DNA of 10,773 nt from the NCBI GenBank assembly GCA_027489105.1, contig JAIYAJ010000142.1, positions 1-10,773 on the forward strand, read 5' to 3'. Below are positions 1 through 10,648 of this stretch, in pieces. The notes under the pieces are model-generated. The model saw nothing but the letters and a program-made list of their open reading frames with translations, searched no databases and was not told where the DNA came from. The position numbers and the translations under genes were made by a program. Position 1 is the first letter of the stretch; every line of letters starts with the position of its first letter. This DNA comes from Zymomonas sp. Its GTDB lineage: Bacteria; Pseudomonadota; Alphaproteobacteria; Sphingomonadales; Sphingomonadaceae.

Positions 1-447
1 CGGCGCTTGTGGGGCGGAATCCGATGCCAGATTGCACGCAAGCCGGAAGGCGACGGTATCGGCAGCCCTGAGCTGCTCGTTGCGGATGGGCCTGTCACCA
101 AGCGCCCCGCATGCGTTTCGACCAACCCGGCAACCGGGCCCGTGCCAGATGCCCGTGGCGAGGCCGCCCCAGGGTTCTCAATGTCGAAACACGGCCATGC
201 GGGCAATGGCGAGCGGGCTCCCGGCAAACCGAAGCCGGACACGTCCCACCCCCGGCCGTGAAACAGATCGCCTTGCCTCCGCACGCGCGGATCGTCGGGG
301 ATGGCTGAAGCTGAGACGATACCAATGCTGCGCGTGATTGCCATATCGGGAGCGGCATCCATTATGATTGATCGATGTCGATGGCTCTTCGCGCTTGCGT
401 CCGAGCAATAAGTGCAGAGATCGAACAACCTCCATCACCGCTTGAGT
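1..447. other. Left-edge region with no supportable gene
   Basis: Several short open frames occur on both strands here, but they overlap one another. None has a recognisable domain, a convincing ribosome-binding site or a protein-like composition; most are rich in Arg, Pro, Ala and Gly, as expected from random GC-rich DNA. The first 300 bases or so are clearly GC-rich, and the rest is closer to balanced. The stretch lies downstream of the stop codon of the minus-strand glycosyltransferase gene. I saw no strong hairpin followed by a T-run that would mark its terminator. It could be non-coding spacer or the decayed remains of a gene, and nothing in it lets me choose. Confidence 0.5.
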
Positions 448-2967
448 TTACTTGCTTCGAGAAACGGCCAGCAATGACAGTATCTGACGCCGTACGAACA
501 TTGGCAGAAGCCGCCAAAAGGGTCTTACTACCTTGAAGAGCAATTCGCGTTCATTGAGGGCGTTAGTAATGCGCAGTTCACTATCGGTGCGAGCAACAAT
601 TTCATTGAGCGGATTTTGATGGCGGAGCGAAATGTCTCTTCGCGTCGTTGCTGACGTCAACACCGTGTCGTTGACCAGCAGGGCAGTAGGACCTGTCCGA
701 CCCAGCAGATCGTATGTGCCCCGACCGTAAATGGCGAGAGCCGGCGTACTGATGATCGTCGCACGCCGCCGCCCCAATGACCGCCGCGAAACGTATTCGT
801 CGACTCCTGCGACAAAAACGCGGAGCGAGTAGTGCCCCGAAGCGATGATATCCGTGTATGCTCGTTCAGTCATAGCCTTGAGAAAGGCAATATCTTCGAG
901 ACGGTCGAAAATTTCGTCGATATTCGAATAATCTTTCTTCAGAGGCAAATAATGTTCGTTAGGCCGAACAACGCCGGAATATGTTCCTTCAAACAGGATC
1001 AGTGCAGTTCTGAGCCTGATTGACTCGAATACTTTTGGCGATATCTGATTCATGTGGACCAGCCCCTCATGTTCCCCGAGGAAGCGGGCCGCGAATGTGT
1101 CAAAATCCATATCGTGATGTTCAGCGGCCAGTCGCGCCAGATTTCCGTCGAAATCAAAGACGTTGCTTCCGCTTTCGGTCGCCAACGTGGCCCGGGCCGA
1201 CCCTATGAAACGATACCAATTGGTCCCGTAGATGCGCTTGTCAGAGTCGACTTCTATATCAGCCCGAACGCCCCGCAATTGCGCCAGCCGCTTAACCTCG
1301 ACCCCAATCGTGTACTTCTCTCGGGCCAACGCACCATAGTGATGCGGCAGCGTGCGCCCGCGATAACCAATTCTCAGGCTCCGCTCCGCCATCGGCGTCA
1401 CGAAGTCGTCGATTGCCGGGTCTTCCGGCACATAACCCGTGAGAGTCGGCAGGAATTCGACCTGCGCAAAGCGCGCGCGGGGGTAAACGAGATCGATCGA
1501 GCCGAAGGGCACGTTCGTGAAAACGGCGTCGATACCCAGCCGCTCCATGCAGCGTCGCGTCGTTTCTACCTGATCGTATTCGTCCTGAATAAACAGCAGT
1601 TTAGGACCACGATACGCCGCGACCAGATCAGCTATCCGGGGGGCGAGATGGTCGGGCGTCGATACACGCACCGAATAATGGATCGCTATGGCGTCATAAC
1701 ACGAAAAGTCAGGTGCCGCACCCGGGCGATCCTCGAACTCAATGTAGCCGGTTGCCGGCATGAAATGGAACCGGTGGCGCGAATGCAGTCGAAACGCTTC
1801 TAGATGCTCCATGATCGTGCTGACATGAGTCGAGCCATCATCATAGAGCATCAGAATATTGAGCGTGGGCCGTAATGCGGAATACTGCTGCCCGTGATGA
1901 TCGAGGTATTCGAGCAATGCGCTAAAACGGTTCTCGTACGACGCACGGCGGGCGGCTTCTCGTCGGGCCGACAGCGCTCCTGGGTCGGCTCTCAGCGGCG
2001 ACACTCTCTCGATTGCGTCGGCAAACTCGTCGGCCGTGAGTGCAGCCGTGAATAGATAAGGCTCGTCGGCGAGCGCGTCAATCGGGATTGTTACGACAGG
2101 GAGTCCGCATGCCAGATATTCATATGCTTTGAGCGGCAAAGACCGCCGCATCAGGTCGCTATCTTTGAATGGAATCAATCCGACAAGTGATTTCTCCGCC
2201 AGTCTCGCAATTCCATGGCTGTCAAGCTGCCCGAAATACTCTACATTTGGCTGTCTTTTGAGACGCTGCCAGTCCTCTCCGCCATCGACGTCCTTGCCAC
2301 AAAACCAGAAACGCCATCCGGGCAGGCGTTCAACGACCGCATTCAGCAAGACGTAGTCGAGACGATCATTGATGCCGCCCTGAAACAGTGCAACCTTGCC
2401 GCTATCCTCAGGTTTGTAGGCGCTCGCGCCCGTTGATTCCCAAAAATCAAAATCACAACCATTGTTCAGGACGTAGACAGGCTTGTCTGTCAAAGGTCGA
2501 TGCGTCTCGGCGACACCGGCAGAAACGGCGACGACGAAATCGACGCGCTGCATTGCGTCAACGGCGAGATGAGATAGATCGGTCGGCGTAATCGCCAACT
2601 TGTCGCATCTGGAGACATAGTCTTCCGTTGCGTGATACACGACCAAAGCGGGATGAAGACGGGCGACAACCGGCGTCAGAAACAGGTTATAAACCCATAC
2701 TAGCGGGCGGCTGACGCCGTGTTTACGCAGCTGCTCGCAGAGGCGCGCGAATTGTTCCTGACTGTGAGATGCAGCAATCCGTACGATTGTGATGTCGTGA
2801 CCTTCGATGGGCTCGAAGGTGATAGCGTCATCAGGCGCATTCGTCTGCACGAAGAAAACAGGCCAGCGTTTCGCAAACTGCGTCGCATAATGATAGCGGT
2901 TGCTGCGTGGCTCTGTGTGCCAGTCCGACCACGTGAGCATGACGACCGAATCAAAATTGCGTCGCAT
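448..2967 (-). CDS. Large two-module glycosyltransferase (GT4-like N-terminus plus second GT-B-like module)
   Basis: This 839-residue protein probably transfers sugars from nucleotide donors onto a growing surface polysaccharide in the cytoplasm. Residues about 8-360 look like a GT-B fold, GT4-type glycosyltransferase. The donor-side motif LPLKAYEYLACGLPVV (277-292), with E283, is typical, and AVSAGVAETHRP (147-158) and VLNNGCDFDFW (166-176) are the usual interdomain segments. A second module starts at about 367 (LNILMLYDDGSTHVSTI) and contains SPKVFESIRLRTALILFEG (643-661), which resembles the CgeB/YkvP-type glycosyltransferase C-terminal half. Residues about 730-839 match nothing I know. 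No signal peptide or clear membrane segment is visible, although the C-terminal 30 residues are basic and hydrophobic and could sit on the membrane. I took the ATG at 2967; M10 (2940) is an alternative, and neither has a strong ribosome-binding site. The gene is transcribed away from the 2-epimerase gene and points out of the window. Donor, acceptor and linkage cannot be told from sequence. Confidence 0.85.
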   Translation of the reverse strand: MRRNFDSVVMLTWSDWHTEPRSNRYHYATQFAKRWPVFFVQTNAPDDAITFEPIEGHDITIVRIAASHSQEQFARLCEQLRKHGVSRPLVWVYNLFLTPVVARLHPALVVYHATEDYVSRCDKLAITPTDLSHLAVDAMQRVDFVVAVSAGVAETHRPLTDKPVYVLNNGCDFDFWESTGASAYKPEDSGKVALFQGGINDRLDYVLLNAVVERLPGWRFWFCGKDVDGGEDWQRLKRQPNVEYFGQLDSHGIARLAEKSLVGLIPFKDSDLMRRSLPLKAYEYLACGLPVVTIPIDALADEPYLFTAALTADEFADAIERVSPLRADPGALSARREAARRASYENRFSALLEYLDHHGQQYSALRPTLNILMLYDDGSTHVSTIMEHLEAFRLHSRHRFHFMPATGYIEFEDRPGAAPDFSCYDAIAIHYSVRVSTPDHLAPRIADLVAAYRGPKLLFIQDEYDQVETTRRCMERLGIDAVFTNVPFGSIDLVYPRARFAQVEFLPTLTGYVPEDPAIDDFVTPMAERSLRIGYRGRTLPHHYGALAREKYTIGVEVKRLAQLRGVRADIEVDSDKRIYGTNWYRFIGSARATLATESGSNVFDFDGNLARLAAEHHDMDFDTFAARFLGEHEGLVHMNQISPKVFESIRLRTALILFEGTYSGVVRPNEHYLPLKKDYSNIDEIFDRLEDIAFLKAMTERAYTDIIASGHYSLRVFVAGVDEYVSRRSLGRRRATIISTPALAIYGRGTYDLLGRTGPTALLVNDTVLTSATTRRDISLRHQNPLNEIVARTDSELRITNALNERELLFKVVRPFWRLLPMFVRRQILSLLAVSRSK

Positions 2968-3161: not shown

Positions 3162-4229
3162 ATGCCTCAAATCCTCACCGTGCTCGGCGCGCGCCCGCAA
3201 TTCATCAAGGCTGCGCCCGTGAGCCGCGCGATCGCCGCCGCGGGTATGGGCGAAATCATCGTCCATACCGGCCAGCATTTCGACGCTCAGATGTCGGATA
3301 TCTTCTTCGACGAGCTCGACATCCCCAAGCCGCGCTACAATCTCAGCGTCAACAGCCTGGGCCACGGCGCCATGACCGGGCGCATGCTTGAGAAGCTCGA
3401 GGAGTCGATGCTCGCCGAGAAGCCTGACCTCGTTCTGGTCTATGGTGACACCAACTCGACGGTCGCCGGCGCTTTGGCGGCAGCAAAGCTGCATATTCCC
3501 GTGGCGCATGTCGAGGCGGGGCTGCGCTCCTTCAACCGGCGCATGCCCGAGGAGATCAACCGGGTGGTGGCAGACCATGTAAGTACCTTGCTGTTCTGCC
3601 CGACACGCAGCGCCGTCGACAATCTCGCTCGTGAGGGCATCGTCGCGGGTGTCCATGCGGTCGGCGACGTGATGTTCGACACCACTCTGGCTGCGATTGA
3701 ACTCTCCGGCGAGCGCTCGCGCATCGTCGAGGCGCTTGGCCTCGCGCCGCAGAGGTACGCCATCGCGACCATTCACCGCGCCGAGAACACAGATGACGAA
3801 GAGCGTTTCGCGCGCGTCGTCGTCTGGCTCGAGGCGGCCGCGCGCGAGCGCCCGGTCATCATGCCTGTCCATCCGCGCACACGGAAGCTGTTCGATGCGC
3901 GCGGGCTGGCGCCGGAGGGGGTGGTCCTGATCGATCCCGTCGGCTACCTCGACATGGCCCGTCTCCTGCACAATGCTGCAGCCGTCTTCACCGATTCGGG
4001 AGGGCTGCAGAAGGAGGCTTATTTCCATCGCGTCCCCTGTGTCACGCTGCGCGACGAGACCGAGTGGGTCGAGACCATTGAGGCCGGCTGGAACCGGCTC
4101 TGGACCGGCCCCGATTATCAGCCGCGTCGGGATATCCCCGATTACGGCACGGGGAACGCATCGACCCTGATCGCAACCGAGATCGTCGGATTTCTCAAAG
4201 CGTATCAGTCCGCTATGCGGCGGCAGTAA
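3162..4229 (+). CDS. wecB: Non-hydrolysing UDP-sugar 2-epimerase (WecB family, WbpI/WlbD-like)
   Basis: This 355-residue cytoplasmic enzyme inverts C2 of a UDP-2-acetamido sugar, through a 2-acetamidoglucal intermediate in this family. The length and motifs are complete: LGARPQFIKA (8-17), HTGQHFDAQMSDIFF (35-49), GDTNST (95-100), HVEAGLRSFNRRMPEEINR (116-134), TIHRAEN (203-209), PVHPRT (235-240), DSGGLQKEA (278-286) and RDETEW (297-302). Expected catalytic residues are D96, E118, E131 and H205. The GARPQFIKA start, the HFDA/MS/IFF block and the HG-MTGRML segment are, from memory, closer to WbpI/WlbD (UDP-2,3-diacetamido-2,3-dideoxyglucuronate 2-epimerase) than to classical WecB, which begins GTRPEAIK. 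The likely product is therefore UDP-ManNAc3NAcA, which fits the SDR genes nearby; UDP-ManNAc remains possible. It is the only plus-strand gene in the window. Its ATG follows a weak ribosome-binding site, and its last 25 bases overlap the convergent wzt gene. Confidence 0.93.
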   Translation: MPQILTVLGARPQFIKAAPVSRAIAAAGMGEIIVHTGQHFDAQMSDIFFDELDIPKPRYNLSVNSLGHGAMTGRMLEKLEESMLAEKPDLVLVYGDTNSTVAGALAAAKLHIPVAHVEAGLRSFNRRMPEEINRVVADHVSTLLFCPTRSAVDNLAREGIVAGVHAVGDVMFDTTLAAIELSGERSRIVEALGLAPQRYAIATIHRAENTDDEERFARVVVWLEAAARERPVIMPVHPRTRKLFDARGLAPEGVVLIDPVGYLDMARLLHNAAAVFTDSGGLQKEAYFHRVPCVTLRDETEWVETIEAGWNRLWTGPDYQPRRDIPDYGTGNASTLIATEIVGFLKAYQSAMRRQ

Positions 4230-6718
4230 GCAATGAGATAAAGGCGTCCGTCCTTCTCGGCAAAGAAATCAGCCAGTTTCTGGCCGACCTCGTCCAGGAT
4301 ATTGAGTTGGACTTGGGTTTCGAGGGGGTACGGCGTGATCTGGATCGATGTGGGTTCGGGTGCATTCTCATGAGGAATTGAGATGTCCCAATTGTCGCCG
4401 GTTTGGGGATAGTGAATGAGTTGGAAGGCTGCAGGCCCGGCCTGGTCGATCGACACCACCTCAAACCCCTGCAATCGCGACATCAGACGGCGCAGCGCCT
4501 CCTCGTTGAAAAGTGATACGTGGTAAGGCGGCACCACATTTGCTGATGATCCATGCGACAGTTCGGCGTTGAGCTGTGAGAAATGTGGCACCGCTGTAAC
4601 CAGCCATCCTCCCAACTTGACCAGCCGCGCATAGCTTTCAACGAATGCGAAGGGATCGGGAATATGTTCTAAAACGGCCACGGACGAGACAACGGCGAAC
4701 TGCTCGCCAGCCTGAAAGAGTTCCTGTGGATCACTGGTCACCACGTCGAAATCGAACAGCTCGCGTGCGATGCGGATCGACTGAAGATTCACCTCGTTGA
4801 GCTTCACAGTCCAGCCGGGCCGCAACTGCTGGACGAGATTTGCGAAGGCGCCGAGGCCGCCGCCAACATCGAGCCAAAGCCCCTGATTCGTTCCCTTCGT
4901 TGTCTTGGTGATAATGCCTTCAAGCACGTCACGTGGCGCTGAGAAGGGCGTGCCCTCGCCGCCATTGGCGAGACGAGGCTTCTCGTAAAGCTCTCGTGTT
5001 CGGCTATAATATGCGCCTTGGTAGAGTTGTGTCATGATCTCCGCGCTGGGGTATGGATCAACGCAAACAAACCCACACATCCCGCAACGGGAATGTCTGA
5101 AACCATATTTTGAGAAGGCAAAGTTGAGTGGGCCGCCGGTGCAAGCTGGGCAACTTTCATGGCGCGACCATTGATTGGGATATCCGCCTTGCTCAACACA
5201 AATGCTCTCAATCTCCGCGCGTAACGTCGTGATTTCGGACGAAGATGATGTGTCCGTGCCCTCTTGCATTAACAATGAGCCTTCGACTCCTGATAGCTGC
5301 TGACCCGTTAGCGACGCAGCCTCTGCCTGTCGTCCATAGGTAAGCGTAGGCATGAAAAAAACTGGCGCGCCGACATCCATGCCCGCATCATCGACACTAA
5401 ACGTATAGTAAAAATGTCTGTATTCATAAAATTCCCAAGTCCCAGGCACGTTTGGAACAAGGCCTAGCGAAAGATAATATTCGCCCTTCCTAAAAGGAAG
5501 GTAGTCGAAACTCAGCTCAACATAACCTGAAGGCGCAGGAATCTGACGATCTAACGCGTCAACATAGCTGTCTCGCGTTTCAAACGGCCTAATATTTTGT
5601 GTGAAAAACTGTGCGACTGACGAGAGATCGTATTTGCCATTGACCGACAGTGCCACACCAAGCGTCTCAGCGGGCAGCTCCCCCTCGACATGATAATGGA
5701 TCTTTACTTTGAAAGGCCTCAGCATCGTCAAGCGCGACGTCAGCTTGCCATCAGCGTCAAACATTTCGACGCTGTCGATGTAGACAGGCCCGCGCCGGAA
5801 AACGTGACGCGCCCCGTCGGTATCAGCGTCAAACAAATCACGAAGGGAGCTTTTGGATTTCGATCGATCTTGCTTCGCTTGGCTTGAGACACCCTGGCCA
5901 TCCAACTCTGGGGCGCCGGCAGCGGTATCATTCGGCGCATAGGTGTCGAGATCATCATCAACCGTCTCGATCCAACTGGCGGAATCCGCCTGCTGGTGAG
6001 CAGTCAGATCATAAGCTTGCACTACGCTGATGGCTGGGCCGATCATACGGACTCTGCCGCGCTCCATCCAGATGACGCGCTGACATAGTTGGGCTAACAA
6101 TCCGGTTCCATGCGAAACCAACAACACAGTACGCCCACCGGAACACAGGTGGCGAATGCGCCTGAGGCACTTTTGCACAAAGGTGGAATCACCTGCAGCC
6201 AAAGCCTCGTCAATAATCAAGATGTCGGGTTCGACGGCAGTCGCGATCGAAAACGCCAAGCGAGAGTGCATTCCGCTTGAGTAGGTTTTTACCGGACGCT
6301 CGATGAACTCCGCAAGACCACTAAAATCGATAATCTCATCAATTTTTGAATCGATTTCGGCGCGATTCATGCCGTAAAGTAGCCCGCTGAGATAGATGTT
6401 TTCGCGTCCCGAGTACTCGGGGTTAAACCCCAGGCCGAGCTCAAGGATGGCAGTCACCCGCCCTCTGATATCGACCGAACCGGCTGATGGCTCCAAAACG
6501 CCCGTGATCACCTTCAGCAAGGTCGATTTGCCGGCACCGTTCGAGCCAATGATACCCAGGACCTCGCCACGCGGAACCTCAAAGCTCACGTCATCTAGAG
6601 CCCGAAAGATCGTATGCCGCTTTCGTCGGGTGAGAACCTCGAGCGCGAGGTCGACCGGCTTGGAATAAACCTCGTATTCTTTTACGAGGTTGCAGACCGA
6701 GATTGCTATATCGTTCAC
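4205..6718 (-). CDS. wzt: Wzt O-antigen ABC exporter ATPase fused to zinc-ribbon SAM methyltransferase
   Basis: This 837-residue protein has three modules. Residues 1-240 are the ATPase that powers glycan export with Wzm. They show Walker A GSNGAGKST (58-66), the ABC signature region YSSGMHSRLAF (146-156), Walker B DILIIDE (165-171) and the H-loop SH (202-203). Residues about 305-445 form a beta-rich Wzt C-terminal domain, which in characterised homologues binds the modified non-reducing end of the O-polysaccharide. A Ser/Thr-rich linker follows. Residues about 515-837 add a zinc ribbon (C523, C526, C545, C548) and a class I SAM methyltransferase with motif I LDVGGGLGAF (616-625), an acidic residue at E642 and AVLEHIPDP (681-689). 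Ordinary Wzt proteins are about 400-470 residues and lack this third module. Translation starts at GTG, 12 bases after the wzm stop, so the two genes are probably co-expressed. The target of the methyl group is inferred, not shown. The frame is open throughout, with no sign of a frameshift. Confidence 0.95.
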   Translation of the reverse strand: MNDIAISVCNLVKEYEVYSKPVDLALEVLTRRKRHTIFRALDDVSFEVPRGEVLGIIGSNGAGKSTLLKVITGVLEPSAGSVDIRGRVTAILELGLGFNPEYSGRENIYLSGLLYGMNRAEIDSKIDEIIDFSGLAEFIERPVKTYSSGMHSRLAFSIATAVEPDILIIDEALAAGDSTFVQKCLRRIRHLCSGGRTVLLVSHGTGLLAQLCQRVIWMERGRVRMIGPAISVVQAYDLTAHQQADSASWIETVDDDLDTYAPNDTAAGAPELDGQGVSSQAKQDRSKSKSSLRDLFDADTDGARHVFRRGPVYIDSVEMFDADGKLTSRLTMLRPFKVKIHYHVEGELPAETLGVALSVNGKYDLSSVAQFFTQNIRPFETRDSYVDALDRQIPAPSGYVELSFDYLPFRKGEYYLSLGLVPNVPGTWEFYEYRHFYYTFSVDDAGMDVGAPVFFMPTLTYGRQAEAASLTGQQLSGVEGSLLMQEGTDTSSSSEITTLRAEIESICVEQGGYPNQWSRHESCPACTGGPLNFAFSKYGFRHSRCGMCGFVCVDPYPSAEIMTQLYQGAYYSRTRELYEKPRLANGGEGTPFSAPRDVLEGIITKTTKGTNQGLWLDVGGGLGAFANLVQQLRPGWTVKLNEVNLQSIRIARELFDFDVVTSDPQELFQAGEQFAVVSSVAVLEHIPDPFAFVESYARLVKLGGWLVTAVPHFSQLNAELSHGSSANVVPPYHVSLFNEEALRRLMSRLQGFEVVSIDQAGPAAFQLIHYPQTGDNWDISIPHENAPEPTSIQITPYPLETQVQLNILDEVGQKLADFFAEKDGRLYLIAYCRRIAD

Positions 6719-6730
6719 GAAGTCCAGACC

Positions 6731-7585
6731 TTACATTACGCTGGAAAAGTGGTGGCGTAGCCGCGAAAAAACATACGATCCCAACGCCAACATAAAAAAT
6801 GCAAATATTGGGAGAATAAACCAGGCTCGTGCGTTCGTAAAATTTCCGAAATATAATACGTCCTGATAACACCATATCAAATAACTAAATGGATTTAGAT
6901 TAGTTACGAATCTTAAAGTATTGGGTACCATTCCCGGAAGATAAACGATGGGCATTAGGTAAATATTTATTGTAACAAAAACGCGCACCACTTCAGCCGT
7001 GTCTCTAAAATATGGTGTTACTGAGGCAAGAAATAATGAAATTCCCCAAATCAAGCACATATGAATCGAGAAAACGACCGGAAGTAACAAAAACATCCAT
7101 GATATGGTTCCGCGTGATGCGATCGTAAATATCACTACGCATGAAAACAAAACAAGCTGCACAATCAGGGAAGATAAAGCCGTCTTTGCAATGAGAACCT
7201 CGATCGGAAAACTGACTTTTTTCACAATTGTCGAATTTGCCAAAACGACTCCCGTCGCACGGGATATGATATCTTGCGTAAGGAGCCAAGGCGCCAAGCC
7301 CGAAAAAAGGTACACTAAATAGTCACTAGGTCCGTTACTGCCAATTCTAACACTGAATACGATGGTAAATAGAAACGCATAGACAGCAAATATCAGCAAC
7401 GGATGCACCGCGAGCCAAACAATGCCCGCCGCCTGTCCGGCATGCATGTCTGTCATTTCCCGTCGCGCCATTTCCCACACCAGAGTGCGCTGACGCCAAA
7501 CAGATCGCATCAACACAAGAATGCCGAGACCGCGCTCATGGGGAGCGACGCCGCGGCGAAGGAATTTATCGCCTGATAGTTCCAT
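6731..7585 (-). CDS. wzm: Wzm O-antigen ABC exporter permease
   Basis: This 284-residue inner-membrane protein should dimerise to form the channel through which the lipid-linked polysaccharide is exported, driven by the Wzt ATPase encoded just downstream. About six membrane-spanning segments are visible, near residues 53-77, 89-108, 128-156, 163-188, 199-216 and 253-274. Family landmarks are KVSFPIEVL (123-131) and ASVTPYFRDTAEVVRV (187-202). Length is normal for the ABC-2 polysaccharide exporter family. I used the ATG at 7585. M26 (7510) is a possible shorter start, because homologues often begin near the amphipathic helix before the first membrane segment. The gene lies 34 bases after the stop of the preceding SDR gene and 12 bases before wzt. 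Its DNA is strikingly AT-rich: bases 6961-7080 are 45 of 120 G or C, against 41 of 60 at 8101-8160 in the neighbouring SDR gene. This suggests a separate origin. Confidence 0.95.
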   Translation of the reverse strand: MELSGDKFLRRGVAPHERGLGILVLMRSVWRQRTLVWEMARREMTDMHAGQAAGIVWLAVHPLLIFAVYAFLFTIVFSVRIGSNGPSDYLVYLFSGLAPWLLTQDIISRATGVVLANSTIVKKVSFPIEVLIAKTALSSLIVQLVLFSCVVIFTIASRGTISWMFLLLPVVFSIHMCLIWGISLFLASVTPYFRDTAEVVRVFVTINIYLMPIVYLPGMVPNTLRFVTNLNPFSYLIWCYQDVLYFGNFTNARAWFILPIFAFFMLALGSYVFSRLRHHFSSVM

Positions 7586-7619
7586 GGCCTAGATCATACC
7601 CTCGACACCAAACCAGCTT

Positions 7620-8684
7620 TCACAACGCATACTTTCGTATCTCCGGCACGTAATGCACGTGATTTATCATACAGTCCCTGATCTTTGCGCTGTTGAACCG
7701 GGTCCACTCGACCGTACGCCTGATCCCCTCCTCATGGCCGACCTCCGCGACAAAACCGAGCTTTTCACGTGCTTTGTCGGTCGCAGCGAAGCGTTGGCCG
7801 GAGCGGTCCCATTCCCGCGCCGGGGTCAGCGCGATCGGCGTCGCGTTGCCTGTCGCGGAATTGATGCGCTCCGCCAGCTCAAGAATCGAAACTTCGGCGC
7901 CGGAGCCGAGGTTATAGATCTCGCCGGCCTCGCCCCGCAGCGCGCAGGCCATCAAGCCGCGCGCCATGTCCTCGACGAAGATGAAGTCGCGTGTGGCGAT
8001 GCCGCCATTCTCGACCGGCAGCGCCTCGCCATGCAGCGACTTCCAGATGAAGGTGGGGGTCACGTTGCGCCAGACCGTCGCCGGCGTGCCGCGCCAGCGA
8101 CCGGCGCCGAGGATTTCGCCCGGCCCATACACGTTCTGGAAGCGCGCCTTGACGAAGGGCATGCCAAAGCGAGTGAAATAGTAGTTTCCATACATCTCGC
8201 CGATCAGCTTCGAAATCGAGTACGGGCTGTCATGGAAGAGCGAGACCGGCGCGTCCTCGTCCGTCGCGGTGGCGCCATCGAAGGTCTTGGCTGCGACGGC
8301 GCAGCCGGCGGCCGAGTAGACTACCTTCTTCAGGCTCTTGATGTCCTTCAACCGCTCGAACAGCTTCAGGCTGGTCAGCGTGTTGTTGTCGTGATCCATC
8401 AAGGGATCATGGATCGAGGACTGGTTCCCGTGGAAGCAGGCCAGATGATAGGCATAGTCCAGGTCGTCATCGAGGTCGCGCAGGATGCGATCACTGGTGA
8501 TGGGCCCGGAGACCAGATGCACGGCCGGGTCGTCGGGGACGTTGACGGCGTCGGCCGAGAGGAAGTTGTCGACGATCGTCAGTTTGCGGGGCTTCTCGCG
8601 CAGGACCTGCTTGACGAGGTTCGAGCCGACGAAGCCGGCGCCGCCGACCATCAGCACGTTCTTGCCAGCAAAGCTCTCGGTCAT
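7620..8684 (-). CDS. wbmF: WbmF-like NAD-dependent UDP-sugar epimerase (SDR family)
   Basis: This 354-residue extended SDR enzyme has a Rossmann NAD site, GGAGFVGS (14-21), with D39 placed to bind the cofactor ribose, and YSISK (155-159) with Y155 and K159. It closely resembles Bordetella WbmF as I remember it, for example in CFHGNQSSIHDP (83-94), GEILGAGRWRGTPATVWRN (189-207) and RDFIFVEDMARGL (232-244). The Ser/Thr of the catalytic triad is missing: the segment YSAAGC (123-128) has A126 where GalE has its serine. Published structural work on WbmF reported the same loss and pointed to Cys133, His90 and Asn213 as 3,5-epimerase features. By alignment these correspond here to C128, H85 and N207, all present. 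The likely role is 3,5-epimerisation of a UDP-diacetamido-uronic acid to the L-galacto form. That activity was inferred from structure in Bordetella, not assayed. The gene is third in the SDR run and followed by wzm. Confidence 0.88.
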   Translation of the reverse strand: MTESFAGKNVLMVGGAGFVGSNLVKQVLREKPRKLTIVDNFLSADAVNVPDDPAVHLVSGPITSDRILRDLDDDLDYAYHLACFHGNQSSIHDPLMDHDNNTLTSLKLFERLKDIKSLKKVVYSAAGCAVAAKTFDGATATDEDAPVSLFHDSPYSISKLIGEMYGNYYFTRFGMPFVKARFQNVYGPGEILGAGRWRGTPATVWRNVTPTFIWKSLHGEALPVENGGIATRDFIFVEDMARGLMACALRGEAGEIYNLGSGAEVSILELAERINSATGNATPIALTPAREWDRSGQRFAATDKAREKLGFVAEVGHEEGIRRTVEWTRFNSAKIRDCMINHVHYVPEIRKYAL

Positions 8685-8739
8685 GGATGTATCCGTTCGG
8701 AAGATGATGCGGCAGCGTGGAGGGCGGCGAAAAGGCTGG

Positions 8740-9681
8740 TCAAGCCTTCGAAGGCGGTGCCTTCAGATGGCTGTAGAGTGCGGTGACGCCATGATCGTCG
8801 TACCACGACAACATGCGCCGGATCGTCTGCTCGAACGAGTAGCGCGGACGCCAGCCGAAGGTCGCGATGGTCTCCGAGGGGTCGAGAACGACCGCCGGAA
8901 CGTCGTCGGTGCCTGGCTCGACCTCGGGCACCGGCTCCTTCAGCTCGATTCCGAGGTGATCGACCACGATGTCGAAGATCTCCTTGATGGTATGCCCCGT
9001 CCCGGTCGAAACGTTGAAGAGCCCGGTCGGCGCACCATCGGCCATCACCGCATCCATGACTGAAAAGAAGTCGTCCATGTCGATGAAGTCGCGCACGGTC
9101 TTCGAGCAGAAGCAGCCCTTGCCGGCTTTTAGCCTCGTGTAGAACGTCGGAATCGGGCCGATGGCCAAGCGGGGCCCGGTGACATTAGCGAGACGCAGCG
9201 AGACGAAGGGCAGGCCGGACATGGCGAGATAGTTTTCGCCGGCCTGCTTGGAGATGCCGTAACTGGTAAAGGGGCGAGCCGGGGCGTAGGCGGGAATCGG
9301 CAGCCGATCCGGCCGGCCATAGCCGAGAGCGGTGTGGAAATTGACGAAGCGCTTGATACCCGCCGACCGCGCAGCCTCGACGACATGGATCGTGCCCTCG
9401 ACATTGGTGCGCGTATCCTCAAGCCAGTCGTCGGGATCCTTGTAGGCCGCGGCGGAGTGGACGACATGGCTCGGACGGAACTCGGCGAAGAGAGCATCGA
9501 CGAGTGGCCGGTCCTGGACGTTGCCTTCGACGACGTTCAGCCCCGGATGCGCCTCCGGCAGCGAGCCGCGATGCCCCGTAGCGAAATTGTCGAGCACCAG
9601 GACTTCATGCCCGGCTTCGAGATAACGCTCGGTCAGATTCGAGCCGAGGCATCCGGCGCCGCCCGTGATGAGGATACGCAT
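8740..9681 (-). CDS. wbmG: WbmG-like NAD-dependent UDP-sugar epimerase/oxidoreductase (SDR family)
   Basis: This 313-residue extended SDR protein has the NAD motif GGAGCLGS (7-14), D31 for the cofactor ribose, the conserved stretch HSAAAYKDPDDW (75-86), T117 in NFHTALGYG (114-122), and YGISK (141-145). The triad is therefore Thr-Tyr-Lys, as reported for Bordetella WbmG, which it resembles strongly, including LRLANVTGPRLAIGPIPTFY (162-181). WbmG was proposed to act as an oxidoreductase or C4 epimerase on a UDP-sugar, because its active site lacks extra acid/base groups. An open frame extends upstream to 9882, but those 67 residues lie inside the preceding gene in another frame and do not look like an SDR. 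MRILITGG at 9681 is the natural start and has a good ribosome-binding site. The upstream SDR gene ends 7 bases earlier, which implies translational coupling. It is clearly a distant paralogue of the gene at 9689-10648. Confidence 0.92.
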   Translation of the reverse strand: MRILITGGAGCLGSNLTERYLEAGHEVLVLDNFATGHRGSLPEAHPGLNVVEGNVQDRPLVDALFAEFRPSHVVHSAAAYKDPDDWLEDTRTNVEGTIHVVEAARSAGIKRFVNFHTALGYGRPDRLPIPAYAPARPFTSYGISKQAGENYLAMSGLPFVSLRLANVTGPRLAIGPIPTFYTRLKAGKGCFCSKTVRDFIDMDDFFSVMDAVMADGAPTGLFNVSTGTGHTIKEIFDIVVDHLGIELKEPVPEVEPGTDDVPAVVLDPSETIATFGWRPRYSFEQTIRRMLSWYDDHGVTALYSHLKAPPSKA

Positions 9682-9691
9682 GCTCGCCTCA
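9682..9691 (-). promoter_or_regulatory. Ribosome-binding site overlapping upstream stop codon
   Basis: Read on the minus strand, this is TGAGGCGAGC followed directly by ATG. The TGA is the stop codon of the WbmH-like gene, and the overlapping GAGG is a Shine-Dalgarno core 5 bases before the start of the WbmG-like gene. This decides the start at 9681 over the longer in-frame option at 9882 and suggests that the two SDRs are made by coupled translation. Confidence 0.7.
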
Positions 9692-10648
9692 GCCCTTCGG
9701 CGCCGTGTTGATGTCGGCGCGGGCTTCCTTGAGGTGGGTGTAGCCGCCAACGACACCTTCCTTCTCCCAACGCTCGACCGACAGCCGCGCGATCTCGTCG
9801 AGCGGTGTGAACTCGACATCGCCGAAATCGGCGAAGGTCCGGGAGGGATCGAGCAGGATGGAAGCAGCGTCGTCCGGTCCAAGCGGCTTCACTTCCGGTT
9901 CCGGATAGTCGTTGAGCTTCATCGCCTTGACGACCGCGTCGTAGAGTTCCTTGATCGCCACGTCCTTGCCGGACGAGAAGTGATAGGTGCCATTGCCCTT
10001 TCCGCCAGCCGCCTGAACCACCACCTTGGCAAGGTCGCCGGCATAGCAGAAGTCGCGCCGGGCCGGCGTTACGAAACATTTCTTGCCTTCGGCGAGGCGG
10101 CCGTAAAAAATCGGCAGCGGGCCGGAAACGTTGCGCGGGCCGATGACGTTGGCGAGCCGGAAGGTCACCCAGTCGACGCCAGAAAACTGCACATAGTGCT
10201 CGCCGGCAGTCTTGGAGATCGCGTAACTGGAATTGACCGGGTCGATCGGATGGTCGAGCTGGATCGGTTGCTGCAGCGGCTTGGTGCCGTAGCAAAGCGC
10301 CGTCTGGAAATAGATCAGCCGGCCGACCTTATGGAGCTTGCAGCCCTTGGCGATGTTGGCGCCACCGACAGCATTGACCAGCGCATCGGTCTCCCAGTCA
10401 TCCGGATCCTTGTAGGATGCGGCCGTATGCACGACGACGTCCGGCTTGAAATCGCTGAAGAGCTGGTCGACGAGCTTCCAGTCGGTGATCGAGCCCTCGA
10501 TCTGCGTCAGGCGCTCCTGATCGAGAAGGTTGTCCTTCCGGCCAGTGGAGAAGTTCTCGAGCGACATCACGCTATCGCCGCGCGCCAGGAACATATCCGC
10601 CGCGGTAGAGCCGACTTGGCCGGAGCCGCCCGTAATGAAGACCTTCAT
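9689..10648 (-). CDS. wbmH: WbmH-like NAD-dependent UDP-sugar epimerase/oxidoreductase (SDR family)
   Basis: This 319-residue extended SDR enzyme has the NAD motif GGSGQVGS (7-14), an acidic E31 where the paralogue has D31, HTAASYKDPDDW (74-85), T116 in YFQTALCYG (113-121), and YAISK (142-146). The Thr-Tyr-Lys triad and blocks such as FRLANVIGPRNVSGPLPIFY (163-182) and GGYTHLKE (301-308) match Bordetella WbmH as I remember it. WbmH was described as having the triad in an otherwise feature-poor site, consistent with oxidation/reduction or C4 epimerisation of a UDP-sugar rather than 3,5-epimerisation. It shares the AxYKDPDDW and RLANV-GPR blocks with the next gene and probably arose from the same ancestor by duplication. 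The ATG at 10648 follows GGGA at a spacing of 8 bases. A partial gene ends 26 bases upstream. Confidence 0.92.
   Translation of the reverse strand: MKVFITGGSGQVGSTAADMFLARGDSVMSLENFSTGRKDNLLDQERLTQIEGSITDWKLVDQLFSDFKPDVVVHTAASYKDPDDWETDALVNAVGGANIAKGCKLHKVGRLIYFQTALCYGTKPLQQPIQLDHPIDPVNSSYAISKTAGEHYVQFSGVDWVTFRLANVIGPRNVSGPLPIFYGRLAEGKKCFVTPARRDFCYAGDLAKVVVQAAGGKGNGTYHFSSGKDVAIKELYDAVVKAMKLNDYPEPEVKPLGPDDAASILLDPSRTFADFGDVEFTPLDEIARLSVERWEKEGVVGGYTHLKEARADINTAPKG

What the first reader, a model, noticed from the sequence alone, without database searches (positions are those of the whole stretch)
4205..5180. Methyltransferase fused to the C-terminus of the O-antigen exporter ATPase Wzt
The protein runs without a break from a full ABC ATPase, through a Wzt carbohydrate-binding domain, into a class I SAM methyltransferase (LDVGGGLGAF, AVLEHIPDP). 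In well-studied ABC-dependent O-antigens (E. coli O9a type), a separate enzyme caps the chain with a methyl or phosphomethyl group, and the Wzt C-terminal domain recognises that cap before export. Here, capping, cap recognition and the export motor would be one polypeptide, which implies direct coupling of chain termination to export. The domain order is seen in the sequence; the cap function is inference. I do not know how widespread this fusion is.
Basis: partly seen in the sequence, partly recalled or inferred. Interest (0 to 1): 0.78.

Follow-up and report, generated by a model that had tools for sequence, protein, structure and literature searches.

The report
Sugar-chain exporter fused to methylating enzyme
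A bacterial pump motor that exports surface sugar chains is built as one protein with a methyl-adding enzyme, which probably marks the finished chain end right at the export gate; the design recurs in other bacteria, and in what I read nobody has tested it.

Summary
The fusion is real. One open 837-aa frame (window 4205-6718, minus) holds an ABC ATPase, a Wzt carbohydrate-binding domain (CBD) and a complete zinc-knuckle SAM methyltransferase (MT), 12 bases after its permease Wzm. Of 71 database relatives of the MT half, 63 carry both ATPase and MT by Pfam; 4 of the 6 named fusion sources are Alphaproteobacteria. It is rare: 2 of 397 genomes sampled in the order. All 62 aligned fusions keep the zinc cysteines, SAM-binding glycines and CBD core, joined by variable linkers.

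The only two unfused Wzts that a CBD search found in those genomes are each followed directly by a separate MT gene. In 14 of 78 scored Wzt loci (all 14 Bacteroidota) an MT lies one or two genes downstream. Four free relatives of this MT have long helical tails, two of them coiled-coil-like, the layout of known chain terminators; the fused form lacks it.

My best reading is a chain-end methyltransferase tethered at the export gate. Target, glycan and coupling are inferred. A nucleotide-sugar or internal target is not excluded; a phosphomethyl cap is unsupported (no kinase domain found). New variant of a known kind.

The parts
4205..6718 (-). Whole fused gene: Wzt ATPase, carbohydrate-binding domain and methyltransferase, 837 aa, GTG start
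6200..6598 (-). ABC_tran match in the nucleotide-binding domain (residues 41-173); closest solved relatives by sequence: 6amx, 6m96, 8dku (Aquifex-type Wzt)
5816..5935 (-). Linker 1 (residues 262-301), mostly under pLDDT 50 in the model, poorly conserved
5390..5794 (-). Wzt_C carbohydrate-binding domain (residues 309-443); S417, G419, N423, P425, W428, Y433, H435 identical in 62 of 62
5237..5326 (-). Linker 2 (residues 465-494) between CBD and MT, under pLDDT 50; 18-55 residues over the columns of residues 462-496 in 62 fusions
4208..5236 (-). Methyltransferase module (residues 495-837), models alone at mean pLDDT 94.3, pTM 0.92
5075..5152 (-). Zinc-knuckle-like CxxC...CxxC (residues 523-548), all four Cys identical in 62 fusions; zinc binding itself is inferred
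4451..4882 (-). SAM-binding core, Methyltransf_23 (residues 613-756), with motif I at 616-623 and E684-H685
6731..7585 (-). Wzm permease (ABC2_membrane), 12 bases upstream of the fused gene
7620..8684 (-). Nucleotide-sugar SDR (NAD-dependent epimerase/dehydratase), also upstream of the Bosea fusion
8740..9681 (-). Second nucleotide-sugar SDR (start read at MRILITGG; the listed ORF opens earlier at 9882)
9689..10648 (-). Third nucleotide-sugar SDR
3162..4229 (+). WecB-type UDP-GlcNAc 2-epimerase, convergent, overlaps the end of the fused gene by 25 bases
448..2967 (-). 839-aa glycosyltransferase; its C-terminal part matches the 474-aa L093 gene at 32% identity

Best explanation
The protein is the ATPase half of a Wzm/Wzt exporter for a lipid-linked surface polysaccharide, to which a chain-terminating methyltransferase has been tethered. 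Proposed working: a growing chain reaches the exporter; the tethered MT methylates its non-reducing end and so stops growth; the neighbouring CBD on the same flexible arm binds the methylated end; ATP binding then releases it into the Wzm channel. Shown: the domain order, intact catalytic and knuckle motifs, variable low-confidence linkers, and the recurrence of the fusion. Inferred: that the MT acts on the chain end, that the CBD reads that product, and that export depends on it. In the Klebsiella and E. coli systems that I read about, the terminator sits on a coiled-coil ruler; none was detected in the fused protein or in the other six complete genes of the window, so here the cap would be added at the gate.
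For: 1) 63 of 71 relatives carry ATPase and MT by Pfam; motif I Gly 619/620/621/623, E684, H685 and the four Cys are identical in 62 of 62 aligned fusions, so the enzyme is under selection. 2) The only two unfused Wzts found by a CBD search of 397 genomes (L091, L092; 44 and 43% identity over 456-469 aa) are each followed directly by a separate MT gene. 3) In the 78 of 80 fetched Wzt loci that could be scored, same-strand MT ORFs lie at +1 in 7 of 75 and +2 in 10 of 70 (14 loci, all Bacteroidota by title), against 1 of 322 at -1 to -5. 4) Free members of the same MT family, P0044, P0050, P0060 and P0098, bear 135-198-residue helical-looking tails; heptad periodicity is clear in P0060 and weaker in P0098 (3 and 40 of 500 shuffles reach it; 2 and 6 of 300). 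None of 65 ATPase-bearing rows has a tail above 14 residues. An MT with a C-terminal coiled coil is the layout of the E. coli O101 MT, needed for O-methylation and read by its authors as end-capping (PMC13168486, passages). 5) CBD and MT divergence go together beyond the ATPase (partial r 0.62; ATPase-MT given CBD 0.14). 6) Precedent: the Aquifex Wzt CBD binds a 3-O-methyl sugar cap (PMC9445017, abstract and passages).
Against: The best fold matches (MtmC, TcaB9, KijD1) are sugar-nucleotide or related sugar methyltransferases. P0025 joins the same MT to an ATPase with no Wzt_C match. Three Wzts with the same CBD are unfused (P0121-P0123), and whether an MT gene lies beside them could not be seen. 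64 of the 78 scored Wzt loci show no MT at +1 or +2, and the upstream control is partly trivial, as Wzm usually sits there. Most free MTs lack a long tail, and P0044 and P0050 fail the heptad tests. The MT genes beside L091 and L092 belong to other MT subfamilies (30.8 bits, and no reported match, to the family model), and the L091 one shows no heptad signal. E. coli O101 strains with a broken MT gene still make O polysaccharide. The CBD alignment to Aquifex is weak.
Confidence: 0.55

Rival explanations
1. The MT methylates a nucleotide sugar (C- or O-methylation) or an internal residue of the repeat, and the fusion only places a tailoring enzyme near the membrane.
Confidence: 0.25
2. The MT modifies a chain end that an earlier terminator has already made; it is a second check, and a separate ruler protein outside the window sets the length.
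For: The window is 10773 bases and may cut the cluster; the Hyphomicrobium cluster L093 holds a second MT gene (14618-15565).
Against: No second MT among the 7 complete genes of the window; no coiled-coil-like stretch passes in any of these 7 proteins. In the Bosea stretch L001 I saw no other MT, but by eye only: the script's ORF picker took wrong frames over its SDR genes.
Confidence: 0.1
3. The fusion is a neutral join of two neighbouring genes with no functional coupling.
For: wzt and MT genes are neighbours in some loci; fused and free MTs are mixed in the tree; linkers are poorly conserved.
Against: The fused state persists over 43-91% identity to the window in 61 other sequences with all motifs intact. 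P0025 shows the same MT joined to another type of ATPase.
Confidence: 0.1

Closest known systems
Aquifex aeolicus Wzm/Wzt with CBD (PDB 8dku, 7k2t; PMC9445017)
   Different: The Aquifex Wzt chain has 404 residues and ends after the CBD; here an MT follows.
WbdD of E. coli O9a (PMC3482155) and the E. coli O101 MT (PMC13168486)
   Same: Methyltransferases read as chain-end enzymes in Wzm/Wzt pathways; some free relatives of our MT have an MT plus a long C-terminal helical tail.
   Different: Ours is on the ATPase, has no detected coiled coil and no kinase domain, and carries a zinc knuckle.
Geobacillus WsaE (PMC2943079)
   Same: A capping MT domain joined to other pathway enzymes, acting independently of chain length in vitro; wzm, wzt and wsaE overlap (passages). 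It is a precedent for a cap enzyme without a described ruler.
   Different: WsaE joins the MT to glycosyltransferases (synthesis side); here it is joined to the exporter.
Sugar C-methyltransferases MtmC, TcaB9, KijD1
   Same: N-terminal knuckle part plus SAM domain.
   Different: Their C-terminal third is missing here; 13-16% identity; no Pfam sugar C-methyltransferase family reported.

Membership tests
CBD-type Wzt of ABC-dependent glycan export | Wzt-like ABC ATPase with Walker A and signature | tested here: met
   ABC_tran 86.8 bits; Walker A (GSNGAGKST) and YSSGM present; 6amx E 1.5e-65
CBD-type Wzt of ABC-dependent glycan export | Wzt_C carbohydrate-binding domain | tested here: met
   32.8 bits against cut-off 30.4; 8dku_A aligned over model residues 5-454
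CBD-type Wzt of ABC-dependent glycan export | Wzm permease encoded beside it | tested here: met
   ABC2_membrane gene 6731-7585, 12 bases upstream
CBD-type Wzt of ABC-dependent glycan export | CBD binds a modified non-reducing end | not testable with these tools
   weak alignment only: Aquifex T346, A348, W362 fall on S417, G419, Y433 when numbered by hand
WbdD-type chain terminator | SAM methyltransferase domain | tested here: met
   motif I Gly identical in 62 of 62
WbdD-type chain terminator | Kinase domain (O9a type) | tested here: not met
   no kinase family among Pfam matches at E 0.01
WbdD-type chain terminator | Extended coiled coil (ruler) on the terminator | tested here: not met
   no Pro-free 56-aa window with at most 4 Gly in the fused protein (a home-made test); tails 0-14 aa in 65 ATPase-bearing rows
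WbdD-type chain terminator | Modification of the non-reducing end stops growth and licenses export | not testable with these tools
   needs glycan chemistry
Zinc-containing sugar C-methyltransferase (TcaB9, MtmC) | Knuckle part plus SAM domain fold | tested here: met
Zinc-containing sugar C-methyltransferase (TcaB9, MtmC) | Family-specific sequence models and C-terminal third domain | tested here: not met
   no such family at E 0.01; alignments stop at about residue 268 of about 405; which Pfam families these are is recalled
UbiG | NCBIfam equivalog score | tested here: not met
   23 bits against cut-off 102.95

The most novel reading that the evidence does not exclude
Capping at the gate without a ruler. 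The chain terminator sits on the exporter instead of on a coiled-coil scaffold, so that chain length is set by a race between the polymerase and a methyltransferase swinging on the pump ATPase, and termination, proofreading and export become one event.
Probability: 0.3. Interest if true: 0.8.

Novelty: new variant of a known kind. Interest (0 to 1): 0.6.

Why it matters
How termination of a surface polysaccharide is coupled to its export is known, in what I read, from systems in which terminator and exporter are separate proteins. A single polypeptide carrying both gives a direct test: the MT can be switched off by one motif change without touching the pump. The family also gives a natural series to compare: MT on a helical tail, MT alone, MT on a CBD-type Wzt, and in one case MT on an ATPase without a Wzt_C match.

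Tried and rejected
Frameshift, readthrough or chimera: rejected. Phosphomethyl cap: no kinase domain found. MT-CBD geometry: the full model has pTM 0.51 and low-confidence linkers, so the question stayed open. Plasmid records: no match. Counting independent fusions: 103 of 119 proteins went into the tree (16 dropped as too short or without the motif), and 21 label changes is only a parsimony count; several rows that my string rule labelled 'free' are fragments or shifted frames (P0067, P0074 and P0082 begin inside the CBD or linker), so I give no number. A maximum-window heptad score did not separate the tails of P0044, P0050 or P0098 from shuffles (z 0.6, -1.9, 1.8; P0060 z 2.6). A Fourier test did for P0060, borderline for P0098 (40 of 500), not for P0044 or P0050. 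In the last scan the window was picked as the best of many but only that window was shuffled, so its counts are too favourable; one glycosyltransferase window of L093 also passed (2 of 300), a likely false positive. Locus survey: home-made ORF picker, same strand only, MT found with this family's model; in GC-rich loci the picker can take wrong frames, as it did in L001. Fold lists are capped and show no absence of other families (notes). Literature: seven searches (one search listed 20 of 24 papers and 15 of 37) of an open-licence library listed no paper on such a fusion by title or start of abstract; I read passages of five papers only (PMC11231755, plus part 1 of 2 of its Discussion; PMC9445017, plus its abstract; PMC3482155; PMC13168486; PMC2943079). 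Most subscription journals are not held.
Full report
What is there. The minus-strand frame 4205-6718 encodes 837 residues without a break. Pfam finds an ABC ATPase, a Wzt_C carbohydrate-binding domain (CBD) and a class I methyltransferase (MT), each above its curated cut-off, Wzt_C only just. The gene lies 12 bases after a Wzm-type permease, which follows three nucleotide-sugar SDR genes. A convergent WecB-type epimerase overlaps its end by 25 bases, and an 839-residue glycosyltransferase follows on the minus strand. The finding's coordinates mark only the MT; the module starts near residue 495 and includes a zinc-knuckle-like CxxC...CxxC pair.

Not an artefact, and not unique. A search with the MT half gave 71 proteins; 63 of them have ATPase and MT by Pfam, and 57 have ATPase, Wzt_C and MT (my count from the table). 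Six fusions carry an organism name: Bosea, Hyphomicrobium nitrativorans, two Xanthobacteraceae bins, and one bin each labelled Proteobacteria and Planctomycetes; a partial protein labelled Comamonadaceae came (P0097). Source names such as 'ATPase subunit/SAM-dependent methyltransferase' show that databases already label the architecture. Bosea carries the same order of three SDR genes, permease and fusion, with one transglutaminase-like gene between the SDRs. The family is rare: 2 of 397 genomes of the order, 1 of 385 of the class (the Bosea genome itself) and 1 of 103 of the second carrier's family (that genome itself); these samples overlap.

Anatomy. In 62 aligned fusions (the window included) the ATPase is 76% identical on average over pairs, the CBD 58%, the MT core 56%, and the two linkers 17 and 11%. 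All four knuckle cysteines, the motif I glycines, E684, H685 and H733 are identical in 62 of 62. The full AlphaFold model has good domains but linkers under pLDDT 50 and pTM 0.51, which fits a swinging arm and leaves MT-CBD geometry open. The MT alone models at pLDDT 94.3 and pTM 0.92. The Aquifex residues T346, A348 and W362, part of the pocket that holds the methyl cap (PMC9445017, passages), fall on S417, G419 and Y433, which are invariant; that alignment is weak and only suggestive.

What the MT family is. A search with the MT alone gave 53 proteins, 43 of them at E below 1e-66; several are fragments or fusions cut short. The full-length free ones share the lead-in motif TLxxE...C..GGYP..WPRH and the knuckle. 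Fused and free rows are mixed in one branch of 99 rows. Four free members, P0044, P0050, P0060 and P0098, add 135-198 residues of charged, helical-looking repeats at the C-terminus. P0060 has heptad periodicity (3 of 500 shuffles reach it) and draws sub-threshold matches to coiled-coil families; P0098 is borderline in one test (40 of 500) and passes another (6 of 300); P0044 and P0050 do not pass. None of the 65 ATPase-bearing rows has a tail above 14 residues. In most Klebsiella O-antigen systems and in E. coli O9, as discussed in PMC11231755 (Discussion, part 1), the terminator sits at the distal end of a coiled coil that acts as a ruler. The E. coli O101 MT has an MT domain plus a C-terminal coiled coil and is needed for O-methylation (PMC13168486, passages).

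Gene order. A CBD search of 397 order genomes found 4: two fused, and two unfused at 38 and 35% CBD identity; the Wzt_C score of one of these (L091) lies just under the Pfam cut-off (29.5 against 30.4). Both unfused Wzts (44 and 43% identical over 456-469 residues) are directly followed by an MT gene of another subfamily, and the one in L092 has a long heptad-rich N-terminal region. Among the 80 Wzt loci, 78 could be scored (the Bosea fusion among them): MT ORFs at +1 in 7 of 75, +2 in 10 of 70, +3 to +5 in 3 of 195, and -1 to -5 in 1 of 322. The +1 and +2 cases are 14 loci, all Bacteroidota by record title, so they are not independent; 64 loci have none there. The upstream control is partly trivial, because the permease usually sits there. 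In Geobacillus, wzm, wzt and the capping enzyme gene wsaE overlap (PMC2943079, passages).

Reading. The simplest account is that a chain-end methyltransferase has been joined to wzt and has lost, or never had, the ruler tail. CBD and MT divergence track each other beyond the ATPase (partial r 0.62, against 0.14 for ATPase-MT given CBD). That is expected if one makes what the other reads, but also, in part, if neighbouring segments are inherited together. A cap enzyme without a described ruler has a precedent in WsaE, whose methylation did not depend on chain length in vitro.

Against. The nearest folds act on sugars before they enter a chain, as far as I recall for MtmC and as titled for TcaB9 and KijD1. 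P0025, a single metagenome protein on a 6.4-kb contig, carries the same MT on an ATPase without a Wzt_C match. Three Wzts with the same CBD are unfused, with unseen neighbours. E. coli O101 strains with a broken MT still make O polysaccharide, so a methyl cap is not always an export licence. The polymer, its methyl group and its end are unknown, and that it is an O antigen rather than a capsule or another glycan is itself inference. I read of no mutant or chemistry for this protein.

Verdict. I file it as a new variant of Wzt, not as a member of the WbdD type, because the kinase and the coiled coil were looked for and not found. It may still work like one.

Noticed in passing
P0025 (metagenome protein, 621 aa): Same MT fused to a different ABC ATPase that has no Wzt_C match: a second partner for the MT, perhaps a separate fusion event.
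   Followed up: partly
P0044, P0050, P0060, P0098: Free MTs of this family with long helical C-terminal tails; P0098 ends in a basic, possibly amphipathic helix (by eye).
   Followed up: partly
P0100, P0073, P0103, P0075, P0077: Some free MTs have N-termini that look like a membrane helix (P0100) or basic amphipathic helices (by eye), perhaps another way to keep the MT at the membrane.
   Followed up: no
window 448-2967 and L093:12735-14159: The window's 839-aa protein joins a glycosyltransferase half to a part matching a separate 474-aa gene of L093 at 32% identity; that gene has no Pfam match. This cluster may have fused more than one gene pair.
   Followed up: partly
window 4205-4229: The WecB-type gene is convergent with the fused gene and their ends overlap by 25 bases.
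   Followed up: no
window 3-428 (-): Start of a further gene cut by the window edge; its beginning (SIGIVSASAIPDDPRVRRQGDL) resembles the L093 glycosyltransferase at 7241-8734 (by eye).
   Followed up: no
L001:802-2784, L091:11001-12872, L093:5400-7295: Asparagine-synthase/amidotransferase genes lie in the related clusters (Pfam), which hints at an amidated sugar.
   Followed up: partly
window 6601-7500: Around the start of the fused gene and in the permease the G+C content drops to 42-45%, against 49-66% in the other 600-base windows.
   Followed up: no
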